Origin: Pseudomonadales bacterium
GTDB taxonomy: Bacteria > Pseudomonadota > Gammaproteobacteria > Pseudomonadales > Azotimanducaceae
Reading direction: 5' to 3'
Length of the DNA: 43,972 nucleotides
NCBI GenBank assembly: GCA_028281005.1
Contig: JANQKS010000062.1
Location: forward strand, 1 to 43,972
Under the pieces are notes generated by a model. It was not told the origin of the DNA. It did not search any database and saw only the letters and a list, made by a program, of their open reading frames with translations. The translations under genes were made by a program, and so were the position numbers. Of the stretch, positions 37,147 through 40,316 are shown one piece after another (the first letter of the stretch is position 1; each line of letters begins with the position of its first letter).

Positions 37147-39039
37147 CTAAACGGCTTGTTCGGGTAACGCAAATTCTAAGCGGCGTTCGTTGATAGAGGT
37201 CAACAGCGCCGCCTCAAAAACATCCACGCTCATCGTATGCTGCTGTTTGTGGCCATAGCGGCGCAAGGTCACGGTACCCTCCGCCACTTCACGCTCACCC
37301 ACAATCAACAAGTTGGGAATCTTCTTCATCGTCGCCGCGCGAATTTTTTTCGGCAGCGTATCGTCCGAAGGCGCTAACTCACCACGCACCATACGACCAC
37401 GTAGCCGTGTCACGATGTCACGGGCATAGCCGTCAAACTGTTCTCCAACGGTGAGCACTTGTACCTGCAGCGGCGCCATCCAGGTTGGAAACGCACCGGC
37501 AAAATGTTCAATCAGAAAAGCCACAAAACGCTCGTGGGTGCTGAACGGCGCACGGTGAATACAATAAGGGGTATGCTCTTCACCGTCTGCACCTACGTAC
37601 TTGAGCCCCATGCGCGCGGGTACGGCAAAATCCAACTGCACCGTTGAAACGGTTTCTTCACGTCCCGTGACCGTGTGAAACTGGAAATCCAACTTCGGCC
37701 CATAAAACGCCGCTTCGCCGACCCCTTCCGTATAGGGCATATCCATCTCATCCAGCACTTGCGCCAGGATGGCTTCACTTTCGGCCCAGGCTACCGGATC
37801 GTCGACGTACTTTTCTTTGCCTTTAGGATCTTCAGGGTCCCAACGGGATAAGCGGATTTTGAAGTCATGCAAACCCAAGACAGCATACGCTGCTTGCGAC
37901 ATTTCGATCACCGCTTTGAATTCGTCTTTGATTTGTTCCTTGGTGCAATAGATGTGCGCATCATTCATGGCCATACCCCGCACCCGCACCAATCCGCCCA
38001 CCGCGCCGGAGTCTTCAAAGCGATAAACCTGCCCGTACTCGGCCAAGCGAAACGGTAAATCGCGGTAACTGCGCGGCTCGGCAGCAAACACCTTGTGATG
38101 GTGGGGGCAGTTCATGGGGCGTAGGCGGTAGGCTTCTTTGACACGTCGTGGCTCGCTTGGGAACTCCACAGCGCCTTGACCTTCAGACGCGGGTGCTTCC
38201 GCTTGTTCCAACACTTCCATCGAGGGGAACATATCTTCTGCGTAATAGGGTAAATGGCCGGAGGTGTGGTAAAGCGCCTCTTTCGCCAGATGTGGCGTTG
38301 CCACGCGTTGATAACCCGCCTTAAATTCAAGCTCACACGCCAGCTTCTCCAACTCGTCTCGAATGACGGTGCCGTTGGGTAACCACAGCGGTAAACCCTT
38401 GCCGATGTCGTTGTCGATGGCATAGATACCCAATTCGCGGCCAAGTTTCTTGTGGTTGCGCGCTTGCGCTGCGGCGAACGCCTGCACATGGGCATCAAGC
38501 GACGCTTGGTCTAAAAATGCCCACGCATAAATACGTGTCATCATGACGTTGTCGGAGTTACCCCGCCAATACGCCCCAGCCACGCTGCGAATTTTGAACG
38601 CATCGCGGGGAATGTCCTTGGTGGTGTGAACATGGGGACCTTCACACATGTCTACAAACGCGCCATTACGGTAAAAGGTTAAATGCGCTAAGCCGTGTTT
38701 TTCGATGAGCTCAGACGCATATTCACGCTTGTAAGGCTCTCCCATCTCGTCGATGCGCGCTAACGCGTCCGCGGCACTCAGCTCTTCCCGGTCAAAGCGT
38801 TGGCCTTTTTTGAGAATCTTCTTCATGCGCCGTTCCAACTCCGGGAAATCCTCCTCGGTGATCGGCGCCGACAGAATAAAGTCGTAGTAAAAACCGTCCG
38901 CAATGGGCGGACCAAAACCTAAAGTGCTGCCGGGACGCATTTCCAGCACTGCCTGCGCCAGGACGTGTGCGAGGCTGTGACGCACCTTATACAGCTCATC
39001 GTGTTCTTCTACTTCGCCCATGTGTTCCAAACTGGCCAT
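37147..39039 (-). CDS. thrS: Threonyl-tRNA synthetase lacking the TGS domain
   Basis: 630 residues. The protein starts almost directly at the editing domain (HSLAHVLAQAV, with the second HxxxH-type element CEGPHVHTT), then VAGAYWRGN. The catalytic core follows: RPMNCPHHHKVF with the zinc Cys, RVRGMAMNDAHIYC (zinc His), CIHRAPFSTHERF (third zinc His, motif 3), and the anticodon-binding domain (VQVLTVGEQFDGYA). The N-terminal TGS domain of E. coli ThrRS is absent. AAGGA just before the ATG and AT-rich DNA upstream show this is the true start. Insertions such as SEGQGAVEFPSEPRR before motif 2 restore the length. The usual downstream infC-rpmI-rplT is absent. Transcription seems controlled by a Thr-rich leader peptide and terminator. 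Confidence 0.95.
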   Translation of the reverse strand: MASLEHMGEVEEHDELYKVRHSLAHVLAQAVLEMRPGSTLGFGPPIADGFYYDFILSAPITEEDFPELERRMKKILKKGQRFDREELSAADALARIDEMGEPYKREYASELIEKHGLAHLTFYRNGAFVDMCEGPHVHTTKDIPRDAFKIRSVAGAYWRGNSDNVMMTRIYAWAFLDQASLDAHVQAFAAAQARNHKKLGRELGIYAIDNDIGKGLPLWLPNGTVIRDELEKLACELEFKAGYQRVATPHLAKEALYHTSGHLPYYAEDMFPSMEVLEQAEAPASEGQGAVEFPSEPRRVKEAYRLRPMNCPHHHKVFAAEPRSYRDLPFRLAEYGQVYRFEDSGAVGGLVRVRGMAMNDAHIYCTKEQIKDEFKAVIEMSQAAYAVLGLHDFKIRLSRWDPEDPKGKEKYVDDPVAWAESEAILAQVLDEMDMPYTEGVGEAAFYGPKLDFQFHTVTGREETVSTVQLDFAVPARMGLKYVGADGEEHTPYCIHRAPFSTHERFVAFLIEHFAGAFPTWMAPLQVQVLTVGEQFDGYARDIVTRLRGRMVRGELAPSDDTLPKKIRAATMKKIPNLLIVGEREVAEGTVTLRRYGHKQQHTMSVDVFEAALLTSINERRLEFALPEQAV

Positions 39040-39080
39040 TTTTTCCTTGTTCCTTTTTCCTTTTTTCTTTCCTAAAACGA

Positions 39081-39114
39081 AAAAACCCCGGAGGCGGGGC
39101 CATCCGGGGTTTTT
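39081..39114 (-). terminator. Intrinsic terminator in the thrS leader (attenuator)
   Basis: Twelve-bp stem (minus strand AAAAACCCCGGA/TCCGGGGTTTTT) with a ten-base loop and an uninterrupted T-run on the minus strand. It lies between the leader-peptide stop (39135) and the thrS start (39039), so transcripts must read through it to reach thrS. Confidence 0.88.
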
Positions 39115-39134
39115 GTTGATGCAGTATGGTTCTG

Positions 39135-39215
39135 CTACCCAAACGACGCCCTAAGCTCCCTCGGAGTGAGGGTGCTGGTCGTAGTGTTGGTAGTGACCAT
39201 GCTTTGTGGATTCAT
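39135..39215 (-). CDS. Threonine-rich leader peptide of thrS
   Basis: A 26-codon frame on the minus strand from ATG 39215 to TAG 39135; a second in-frame ATG is at 39200. The middle reads MVTTNTTTSTLT: seven threonines in ten residues, using ACT, ACC and ACG codons. It lies about 35 nt after a consensus promoter and directly upstream of the terminator that precedes thrS. By analogy with the thrABC and pheST leaders, the ribosome would stall here when charged tRNA-Thr is low and prevent termination. The ribosome site (GATAGAG) is moderate. Confidence 0.8.
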   Translation of the reverse strand: MNPQSMVTTNTTTSTLTPRELRASFG

Positions 39216-39256
39216 GGCGCGGGACTCTATCACAAGCGCAATCGTGATTTGTAGCC

Positions 39257-39285
39257 CTTATAGGCATTGTTGATGCCAAGTACAA
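39257..39285 (-). promoter_or_regulatory. Sigma70 promoter of the thrS leader
   Basis: Minus strand TTGTAC (-35, 39280-39285), 17-bp spacer, TATAAG (-10, 39257-39262). The expected start point is near 39250, giving a 5' leader of about 35 nt before the Thr-rich peptide. It overlaps the start region of the divergent MscS gene. Confidence 0.75.
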
Positions 39286-40316
39286 TGCGGTTTATGGAGG
39301 CTTTCCCAGCAGTTTTGACACAGTGGGCCGTACCGCTGACGGTCACGCTGCTGTGCCTGGCGTTTATCTACTGGCTGCTGGGCAAAACCTTCACCGACCA
39401 ACCCAACAATCGCTTGTACCGCCAGCTTGCCTATGTGGGTTTGTTTGTGGTGTCGCAAATTATCCTCGTGATTGTTCTGCCTTTTGACGACAGCACCCAA
39501 CAACAATTGCTGACTTTGTTTGGGCTAGTGCTCACCGCCATCATCGCCTTGTCTTCCACCAGTTTTGTCAGCAACGCCATGGCCGGGCTCATGCTAAAAG
39601 CCATGGGCAGCTTCCACACCGGCGACTTTATCCGCGTCGAAAACCACTTTGGTCGTGTCACAGCTAAAGCTTTGCTGCACACGGAGATTCAAAGTGAAGA
39701 TCGCGATACTGTCGCGTTGCCCAACATGTTTGTGATCAGCAACCCGGTCAAAGTCGTGGACGCCAGCGGCACTTTAATCTCCGCAGAGATTTCGATCGGC
39801 TTTGATACCCACCGGCGCAGGGTGCGTGAACTGCTGCTGGAAGCCGCGCAGACCGCCGGATTACAAGAACCTTTTGTACAAATCCTCGAGATTGGCGACT
39901 TTGCCGTACGTTATCGGATCACCGGGTTTCTTGAGGACACCAAAAACATTGTCAGCATGCGCAGCGATCTTAAAGCCAATATGTTGGACACTCTGCATCG
40001 CGCCGGTATCGAAATCATGACCCCCAACGTCATGAACCAACGCCCTATACCGGCAGACGTACCCGTCATCCCGCAGCGTGAGCTTAAGCCTGAGGTGGAC
40101 ACCGACACCGGCAAAGCGGAACGCCTGATGTTCGACAAGGCTGAGCTTGCTGCGCGCATCGAGGGATTTCGTGAACAGTGCGACACCTTGCAGCAGGAGA
40201 TAAAAAGTTTGCGCGCCGACAACGCAGAAACAAATGCCGCGGAGATCCGCTGGCGCGAACACCAGGTAGCAGCCTTAAAAGACATCATCGCGCGCTTCGA
40301 CAACGGCAATGAGTGA
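39285..40316 (+). CDS. MscS-family mechanosensitive ion channel
   Basis: 343 residues from ATG 39285; ATG 39294 is an alternative and neither has a strong ribosome site. Three N-terminal membrane segments (AVPLTVTLLCLAFIYWLLG, LAYVGLFVVSQIILVIVLPF, LLTLFGLVLTAIIALSSTSF) are followed by the pore-lining/beta-domain pattern SNAMAGLMLKAMGSFHTGDFIRVENHFGRV and VALPNMFVISNPVKV. The C-terminus is a coiled coil (AELAARIEGFREQCDTLQQE). It is an inner-membrane channel releasing solutes under tension. It overlaps the next gene by eight bases and is divergent from thrS. Confidence 0.9.
   Translation: MRFMEAFPAVLTQWAVPLTVTLLCLAFIYWLLGKTFTDQPNNRLYRQLAYVGLFVVSQIILVIVLPFDDSTQQQLLTLFGLVLTAIIALSSTSFVSNAMAGLMLKAMGSFHTGDFIRVENHFGRVTAKALLHTEIQSEDRDTVALPNMFVISNPVKVVDASGTLISAEISIGFDTHRRRVRELLLEAAQTAGLQEPFVQILEIGDFAVRYRITGFLEDTKNIVSMRSDLKANMLDTLHRAGIEIMTPNVMNQRPIPADVPVIPQRELKPEVDTDTGKAERLMFDKAELAARIEGFREQCDTLQQEIKSLRADNAETNAAEIRWREHQVAALKDIIARFDNGNE

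What the first reader, a model, noticed from the sequence alone, without database searches (positions are those of the whole stretch)
39040..39285. thrS preceded by a Thr-rich leader peptide and terminator: likely ribosome-mediated attenuation of a tRNA synthetase gene
Seen: a TTGTAC-17-TATAAG promoter, a 26-codon frame with seven Thr in ten codons, a 12-bp GC-rich hairpin with T-run, then thrS. The leader segment CCCTC/GAGGG can fold locally. Its TCCGAGGG part can instead pair with CCCCGGA of the terminator's 5' arm (six or seven pairs, one bulge). A ribosome stalled on the Thr codons would cover CCCTC and favour the second pairing. Known: E. coli thrS is controlled by translational autorepression and Bacillus thrS by T-boxes; thrABC and pheST use leader-peptide attenuation. 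A Thr leader for thrS is not the textbook arrangement.
Basis: partly seen in the sequence, partly recalled or inferred. Interest (0 to 1): 0.78.

Follow-up and report, generated by a model that had tools for sequence, protein, structure and literature searches.

The report
Threonine leader-peptide switch controlling thrS
A tiny threonine-rich reading frame and a transcription stop signal sit just before the gene for the enzyme that loads threonine onto its tRNA, so the gene is probably switched on when ribosomes stall for lack of charged threonine tRNA; the mechanism is classical, but this gene and this conserved design are unusual among the relatives of E. coli.

Summary
Upstream of thrS (37147-39039, minus) lie a 26-codon leader ORF with 7 Thr in ten codons (39215-39135) and a strong terminator. 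In the organism's family (close relatives are MAGs titled Pseudomonadales or Gammaproteobacteria) 43 of 116 orthologous upstream regions carry both a Thr-rich short ORF and the terminator; 0 of 12 classical thrS in the family and 0 of 29 elsewhere in the class do. Changes at Thr codons are synonymous in 39 of 42 cases. In 17 of 27 leader clusters the RNA folds as a his-like relay (shuffles: mean 1.7, maximum 7): a ribosome stalled on Thr allows B:C and D:E (antiterminator), a ribosome at the stop leaves C:D plus the terminator. The leader ATG lies 6-10 nt after a -10 box in 23 of 27 clusters, usually without a Shine-Dalgarno, so the leader mRNA looks leaderless. The enzyme lacks the TGS domain. 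Prior art: a leaderless two-Thr thrL before thrS in Streptomyces lividans.

The parts
   Evidence: 3 of 6 match to TTGACA; not at the position of the promoter conserved in relatives
39257..39262 (-). distal -10-like TATAAG, 17 nt from TTGTAC
   Evidence: 5 of 6, 41 nt before the leader ATG
39224..39232 (-). proximal extended -10, TG-A-TAGAGT, 8 nt before the leader ATG
   Evidence: a -10 at 6-10 nt before the leader ATG in 23 of 27 clusters, shuffles mean 0.83, max 4
39135..39215 (-). leader peptide ORF, 26 codons plus stop (MNPQSMVTTNTTTSTLTPRELRASFG)
   Evidence: Thr-rich short ORF also in relatives
39165..39194 (-). regulatory Thr codons (ACT ACC aac ACT ACG ACC agc ACC ctc ACT), codons 8-17
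39158..39172 (-). local CCCTC/GAGGG hairpin within the leader
   Evidence: -6.9 kcal/mol
39137..39151 (-). antiterminator 5' strand GGGCGTCGTTTGGGT (last leader codons and first base of the stop)
39097..39110 (-). antiterminator 3' strand = terminator 5' arm and loop, ACCCCGGATGGCCC
39080..39114 (-). Rho-independent terminator, stem plus T6
   Evidence: -23.5 kcal/mol
37147..39039 (-). thrS, threonyl-tRNA synthetase, 630 aa, without TGS domain

Best explanation
A ribosome-mediated transcription attenuator that senses charged tRNA-Thr and controls thrS. Transcription starts at or close to the leader AUG, and a ribosome follows the polymerase. If Thr-tRNA is plentiful it reads to the stop codon and covers the last codons (39151-39137), so the terminator forms and transcription ends at about 39080. 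If Thr-tRNA is short it stalls on the Thr codons (39194-39165); the last codons stay free and pair with the terminator's 5' arm (39110-39097), and RNA polymerase continues into thrS. In most leader-bearing relatives the same decision runs through one extra hairpin (B:C plus D:E versus C:D plus E:F), as in the his operon. Shown by sequence comparison and folding: the ORF, the Thr run, the terminator, the alternative pairings, their recurrence in the family, and the promoter-to-ATG spacing. Inferred: translation of the leader, stalling, read-through, leaderless initiation.
For: Thr-rich short ORF (>=4 Thr in 12 codons) ending 15-130 nt before a CCCCG...CGGGG-T terminator in 43 of 116 family orthologues (36 of the 43 reach >=5). 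Both elements together: 0 of 12 classical-type thrS in the family and 0 of 29 classical thrS of other families in the class (29 of 52 non-self hits had loci); an ORF with >=5 Thr: 0 of 12 and 0 of 29. Thr is the outlier residue: 36 of 53 against 10 of 53 for Ala and for Arg, shuffles 0.25. Thr codons: 39 synonymous changes, 3 gains or losses; all codon positions 32/19/80 in 24 same-length pairs, which are not independent. Terminator half sequestered more in the stalled state than in shuffles (27 clusters, Wilcoxon p=8e-5), stall-minus-stop difference p=0.005. Relay in 17 of 27 clusters, 100 shuffle rounds mean 1.73, max 7 of 27. Window, 13-nt footprint: about 13-17 nt of the terminator half sequestered for every ribosome position from the start codon to Pro-18, just after the last Thr (P24, which numbers from an upstream start), falling to 0.2-4.7 on the last five codons and 0.6 at the stop; 1 of 60 shuffles had as large a stall-stop difference.
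Against: The window's own antiterminator is not exceptional by itself: its stalled-state sequestration is reached by 13% of 60 shuffles, 62 of 100 shuffles give a direct pairing of 9 bp or more, and direct pairings overall are not enriched (5 of 27 observed, null mean 7.1). At equilibrium the full terminator wins in both states in the window (P=1.00), so the switch must be kinetic. 73 of 116 family orthologues lack the pair of elements under my patterns; 10 of the 53 terminator loci have no Thr ORF in range. The closest full-length orthologue, L003 at 84% identity, keeps a hairpin but no Thr ORF. 5 of 27 clusters meet neither strict definition (L025, L043, L049, L089, L097). The >=4 Thr rule is loose: in L097 it picked a 57-aa ORF that is probably not the leader, and 2 of 12 and 2 of 29 control loci have an ORF with 4 Thr but no terminator near it. 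Rfam Thr_leader and His_leader match only below their cut-offs. No expression data.
Confidence: 0.85

Rival explanations
1. The window copy is a decaying attenuator: the Thr leader and terminator remain from an ancestor with the full relay, but after loss of the C and D segments it no longer switches and the terminator only lowers basal thrS expression. A second ThrRS in the genome would relax selection.
For: Leader-stop-to-terminator gap is 25 nt here against 41-58 nt in 36 of 43 leader loci; the direct antiterminator alone is not beyond chance; a second, TGS-bearing ThrRS is present in the assembly; other members of the genus have no leader under my patterns (for example L003, L006, L008).
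Against: Seven Thr codons and an uninterrupted ORF remain; computed release occurs as the ribosome passes the Thr run; 1 of 60 shuffles shows an equal stall-stop difference.
Confidence: 0.2
2. T-box riboswitch: uncharged tRNA-Thr binds the leader directly, as for Bacillus thrS.
For: T-boxes control thrS in Bacillus (recalled); one Chloroflexi ThrRS locus, L154, has a T-box hit about 830 nt upstream, its target gene not determined.
Against: No T-box hit in the window at gathering threshold, nor among 17 weak matches in 39030-39330 at E<=10; the Thr-codon ORF would be unexplained.
Confidence: 0.02
3. E. coli-like translational autorepression: ThrRS binds a tRNA-like operator in its own mRNA; the terminator hairpin is incidental.
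For: ThrRS-binding operator hairpins are described for E. coli thrS (PMC3858243, passages seen).
Against: The enzyme lacks the TGS (N1) domain in 15 of 15 members scanned; that the N-terminal domain is needed in E. coli is recalled. A terminator and a Thr-codon run are not features of that operator. No operator search was made.
Confidence: 0.04
4. The short ORF encodes a functional small protein, and the terminator belongs to it as a separate gene.
For: Thr codons are under coding constraint.
Against: Between clusters mainly the Thr run is shared; flanking residues and length vary; the RNA switch recurs.
Confidence: 0.03

Closest known systems
his operon attenuator (Salmonella / E. coli; Rfam RF00514 His_leader)
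   Same: Chain of hairpins in which a ribosome stalled early gives B:C and D:E (antiterminator) and a ribosome at the stop gives C:D and E:F (terminator); this is the layout of 17 of 27 family clusters. The layout of his is recalled, not read here.
   Different: Thr codons, target is a tRNA synthetase gene, probably leaderless; the Rfam model gives the window 28.6 of 49 bits.
thr operon attenuator (E. coli thrL-thrABC; Rfam RF00506 Thr_leader)
   Same: Thr-codon leader peptide and terminator.
   Different: Controls thrS, not biosynthesis; the model gives 23.5 of 55 bits; the E. coli thr leader also has Ile codons and a Shine-Dalgarno (recalled).
thrL-thrS of Streptomyces lividans TK24 (PMC8079986, passages seen)
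   Same: Leader peptide with Thr before thrS; leaderless transcript.
   Different: 18 aa with only two Thr, termination called unclear in that paper, actinobacterium.
Other tRNA synthetase attenuators: pheST in gammaproteobacteria, trpS and leuS in Streptomyces (PMC1262725, passages), hisS in bacilli (PMC2965389, passages)
   Same: Attenuator or leader peptide before a synthetase gene.
   Different: Other amino acids and genes.
Sinorhizobium meliloti trpL (PMC7298713, passages)
   Same: Transcript starts with the AUG of the leader peptide.
   Different: trpE(G), Trp; alphaproteobacterium.

Membership tests
Leader-peptide (ribosome-mediated) transcription attenuator | Short ORF with a run of codons for the amino acid of the regulated gene | tested here: met
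   7 Thr in 10 codons; recurs in relatives, 36 of 53 terminator loci with >=5 of 12, shuffles 0.25 of 53
Leader-peptide (ribosome-mediated) transcription attenuator | Rho-independent terminator between leader ORF and structural gene | tested here: met
   39114-39080; pattern in 53 of 116 orthologues
Leader-peptide (ribosome-mediated) transcription attenuator | Antiterminator exclusive with the terminator, chosen by ribosome position | tested here: met
   Computed only. Family: 17 of 27 relay, null max 7. Window: position-dependent but direct pairing alone not beyond chance
Leader-peptide (ribosome-mediated) transcription attenuator | Leader is translated | tested here: inconclusive
   Indirect only: 39 synonymous against 3 non-synonymous Thr-codon changes in 24 pairs of relatives
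Leader-peptide (ribosome-mediated) transcription attenuator | Read-through rises when the cognate tRNA is uncharged | not testable with these tools
   needs reporter or term-seq
Rfam Thr_leader RF00506 | Covariance model score at or above gathering cut-off | tested here: not met
   23.5 against 55 bits
Rfam His_leader RF00514 | Covariance model score at or above gathering cut-off | tested here: not met
   28.6 against 49 bits
T-box leader RF00230 | Match to the Rfam T-box model | tested here: not met
   no match in the window nor in 39030-39330 at E<=10
E. coli-type thrS autorepression | ThrRS with the N-terminal TGS (N1) domain | tested here: not met
   no TGS in 15 of 15 orthologues; present in the assembly's other ThrRS
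E. coli-type thrS autorepression | ThrRS-binding operator hairpins at the ribosome binding site | not tested
   -
Leaderless mRNA | Transcription start at or within a few nt of the AUG | tested here: inconclusive
   Predicted only: -10 box 6-10 nt before the ATG in 23 of 27 clusters (null mean 0.83, max 4), Shine-Dalgarno-like in 1 of 27 leaders

The most novel reading that the evidence does not exclude
One bacterial family replaced its TGS-bearing ThrRS with a TGS-less enzyme and, having lost the domain that E. coli uses for translational autorepression, took up a leaderless, his-type Thr-codon relay attenuator as its feedback control. The element also shows how attenuators change type: B and D are both complements of C, so deleting the C-D module lets B pair straight with the terminator and turns a his-like relay into a trp-like switch, as in this window.
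Probability: 0.4. Interest if true: 0.62.

Novelty: new variant of a known kind. Interest (0 to 1): 0.5.

Why it matters
It adds a recurrent, clearly built Thr attenuator for a tRNA synthetase gene in gammaproteobacteria, where thrS is the textbook case of translational autorepression. It links an enzyme architecture (no TGS) with a change of regulatory mechanism, gives a natural series of his-like and trp-like versions of one switch, and suggests leaderless leader peptides outside rhizobia and actinobacteria. All of this is testable with simple reporters. My paper searches (open-access PMC only) showed no thrS leader peptide in proteobacteria, but subscription papers, including the 2004 survey of proteobacterial attenuation cited in PMC8079986, were not seen.

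Tried and rejected
T-box and other riboswitches: the only Rfam match in the window at the gathering threshold is a tRNA gene. Equilibrium folding of the full leader: the terminator dominates both states in the window and in most of the 43 leaders (mean P 0.91 stalled, 0.98 at the stop; a few, such as L030, L049 and L095, fall to 0.5 or below when stalled), so I turned to nascent transcripts cut before the terminator's 3' arm. A first score that used only the six outer terminator bases gave a weak result (stall above stop by 0.2 in 11 of 43, the reverse in 2), because many antiterminators pair with the inner arm; it was replaced. Thr-rich short ORFs upstream of the 80 named loci: 7 of 77 with enough upstream DNA had >=5 Thr in 12 (L141, L142, L150, L154, L158, L160, L191; L138, L146, L204 not testable). 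L141 and L142 are family members with the attenuator; of the rest, L160 reads by eye as a coding segment shared with L173, L154 has a T-box hit, and none was kept. The nearest window-type enzymes outside the family with upstream DNA (L143 PVC group, L144 Bacteriovoracaceae, L145 Deltaproteobacteria, 52-60% identity) have no such ORF. DNA matches of the terminator region elsewhere in the genus turned out to lie before an MFS transporter gene.

Full report
What is there. On the minus strand, between the divergent mscS-like gene and thrS, lie a 26-codon ORF (39215-39135, MNPQSMVTTNTTTSTLTPRELRASFG), a GC-rich hairpin followed by six T (39114-39080), and thrS (39039-37147). The 630-aa protein has the class II core, anticodon-binding and SAD domains but no TGS domain; 15 of 15 aligned orthologues are the same. 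No Rfam family reaches its gathering score in this region. At relaxed thresholds the two best of 17 weak matches are His_leader (28.6 of 49 bits) and Thr_leader (23.5 of 55): a hint, not a membership.

Conservation. In a sample of 200 genomes of the same family, 185 have a ThrRS match. At E<=1e-170, 10 of 293 genomes sampled in the order have the window-type enzyme, all from this family. At E<=1e-160 only the window's own genome did, among 369 genomes sampled in the class and 398 in the phylum. I examined 116 window-type upstream regions: 28 of the 30 loci (L022 and L031 dropped for lack of upstream DNA) and 88 fetched ones; the match list was itself cut. Of the 116, 53 have the terminator pattern and 43 also have a Thr-rich short ORF (>=4 Thr in 12 codons; 36 reach >=5) ending 15-130 nt before it, in 14 genera. 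Examples: MNPIGQTTATTTTTTTRGGAP, MCDMRVMTTTTTTATSVAGSSRA, MNSQHAFLITTTTTSGWVA. Ten terminator loci have no such ORF in range, and 63 loci have no terminator pattern. Five further loci have an ORF with >=5 Thr but no pattern, or lie out of range (L011, L050, L058, L073, L111), and two more congeners, L224 and L225, have leaders. Controls: both elements are found together in 0 of 12 classical thrS in the family and 0 of 29 in other families of the class (L254 had only 259 nt upstream). An ORF with >=5 Thr occurs in 0 of 12 and 0 of 29; one with 4 Thr in 2 of 12 and 2 of 29, without a terminator; one of the 29 (L269) has the terminator pattern alone. Of the 12 family controls, two lie before genes that I read by eye as infC and rplT; 4 of 17 classical family copies whose downstream DNA I fetched do.

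More than chance. With the >=5 of 12 rule, 36 of 53 terminator loci have a Thr run; Ala and Arg reach 10, other residues 2 or fewer; shuffled sequences give 0.25 on average. In 24 same-length pairs of leaders, Thr codons changed synonymously 39 times and to or from another residue 3 times; differences by codon position were 32, 19 and 80. The pairs are not independent (15 come from one cluster), but the pattern is that of a translated Thr run.

The switch. I grouped the 43 leaders into 27 clusters (80% similarity) and folded the RNA left free by a ribosome with a 13-nt downstream footprint, either at the middle Thr codon or at the stop codon, cutting the transcript before the terminator's 3' arm to mimic transcription. 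The terminator half is sequestered more in the stalled state than in dinucleotide shuffles (p=8e-5), and the stall-minus-stop difference exceeds that of shuffles (p=0.005); the stop state alone does not differ (p=0.37). The folds show a recurring relay. Segment B at the end of the leader ORF pairs with C, which frees D to pair with the terminator's 5' half E. When the ribosome covers B, C pairs with D and the terminator E:F forms. With strict criteria (C and D each sharing at least five bases between their two partners) 17 of 27 clusters have the relay against a null mean of 1.73 and maximum of 7 in 100 rounds; 5 of 27 are direct (null mean 7.1, so not enriched) and 5 meet neither definition. 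A looser call on one representative per cluster gave 19 relay, 6 direct, 2 other. The segment sequences differ between clusters while their complementarity stays.

The window. Its stop-to-terminator gap is 25 nt; in 36 of 43 leader loci it is 41-58. There is no C:D hairpin. Sliding the ribosome along the ORF, about 13-17 bases of the terminator half are sequestered for positions up to Pro-18, just past the last Thr, then the number falls to 0.2-4.7 on the last five codons and 0.6 at the stop; footprints of 9 to 17 nt give the same picture. In the fold of the untranslated leader the Thr-codon region pairs with the antiterminator strand and the terminator forms, as in trp. One of 60 shuffles has as large a stall-stop difference, but 13% reach its stalled-state value and 62 of 100 give a direct pairing of 9 bp or more. 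At full equilibrium the terminator wins in both states. So the window's switch rests on its family resemblance as much as on its own pairing, and must work kinetically. Because B and D are both complements of C, losing C and D would leave B able to pair with E; I infer that this made the window version.

Promoter. In 23 of 27 clusters a -10 box (score at least 5, an extended TG counting as one) lies 6-10 nt before the leader ATG; shuffles give 0.83 on average and 4 at most. A Shine-Dalgarno-like motif precedes the leader ATG in 1 of 27; near the thrS start one is seen in 16 of 27. The leader mRNA therefore probably starts at or near its AUG, as known for Sinorhizobium trpL (PMC7298713, passages) and reported for Streptomyces thrL (PMC8079986, passages).

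Context. The assembly holds a second ThrRS, 40% identical, with a TGS domain, beside a folE2 gene; folE2 neighbours are often zinc-starvation paralogues (recalled). In many family members a single ThrRS match was listed, often the window type. E. coli ThrRS represses its own translation at an operator (PMC3858243, passages); that this needs the N-terminal domain is recalled. That absence of TGS and presence of the attenuator are causally linked is my inference; window-type genes without the leader are common in the family too.

Known and new. Leader-peptide attenuators for synthetase genes are known or predicted for pheST, trpS, leuS (PMC1262725, passages) and hisS (PMC2965389, passages), and S. 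lividans has a leaderless two-Thr thrL before thrS. New here, as far as my searches reach: a Thr-run leader before thrS in gammaproteobacteria, found over 14 genera, on a TGS-less ThrRS, with a his-like relay and a trp-like derivative. This is a new variant of a known kind.

Noticed in passing
L226, L227, L229, L230, L232, L233 (same genus): A gene that looks like an MFS transporter (by eye) is preceded by a very similar terminator (CCCCGAAGAGCC...GCCTTCGGGG-TTTTTTCGTTTTGGG in several) and, in L229, L230 and L232, a short ORF ending near KDF-AH-GGSDG (a variant in L233); possibly another attenuator.
   Followed up: partly
L002 / L251 (G000:C105:45963-47909, minus): Second, TGS-bearing ThrRS of the same assembly lies next to a folE2 gene; it may be a zinc-starvation paralogue or a contaminating contig.
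   Followed up: partly
L011, upstream of thrS: Compared with L009, an inverted-repeat element (ends CGCGGTAGAAAT...ATTTCTACCGCG) appears inserted between leader ORF and terminator, inside the attenuator (by eye).
   Followed up: no
   Followed up: no
L003, upstream of thrS: The closest full-length orthologue (84% identity) keeps a hairpin before thrS but has no Thr leader ORF; possibly a recent loss of the switch within the genus.
   Followed up: partly
L154 377-673: Chloroflexi (Anaerolineae) MAG with a T-box hit about 830 nt upstream of a ThrRS whose N-terminus looks TGS-less; which gene the T-box controls was not determined.
   Followed up: no
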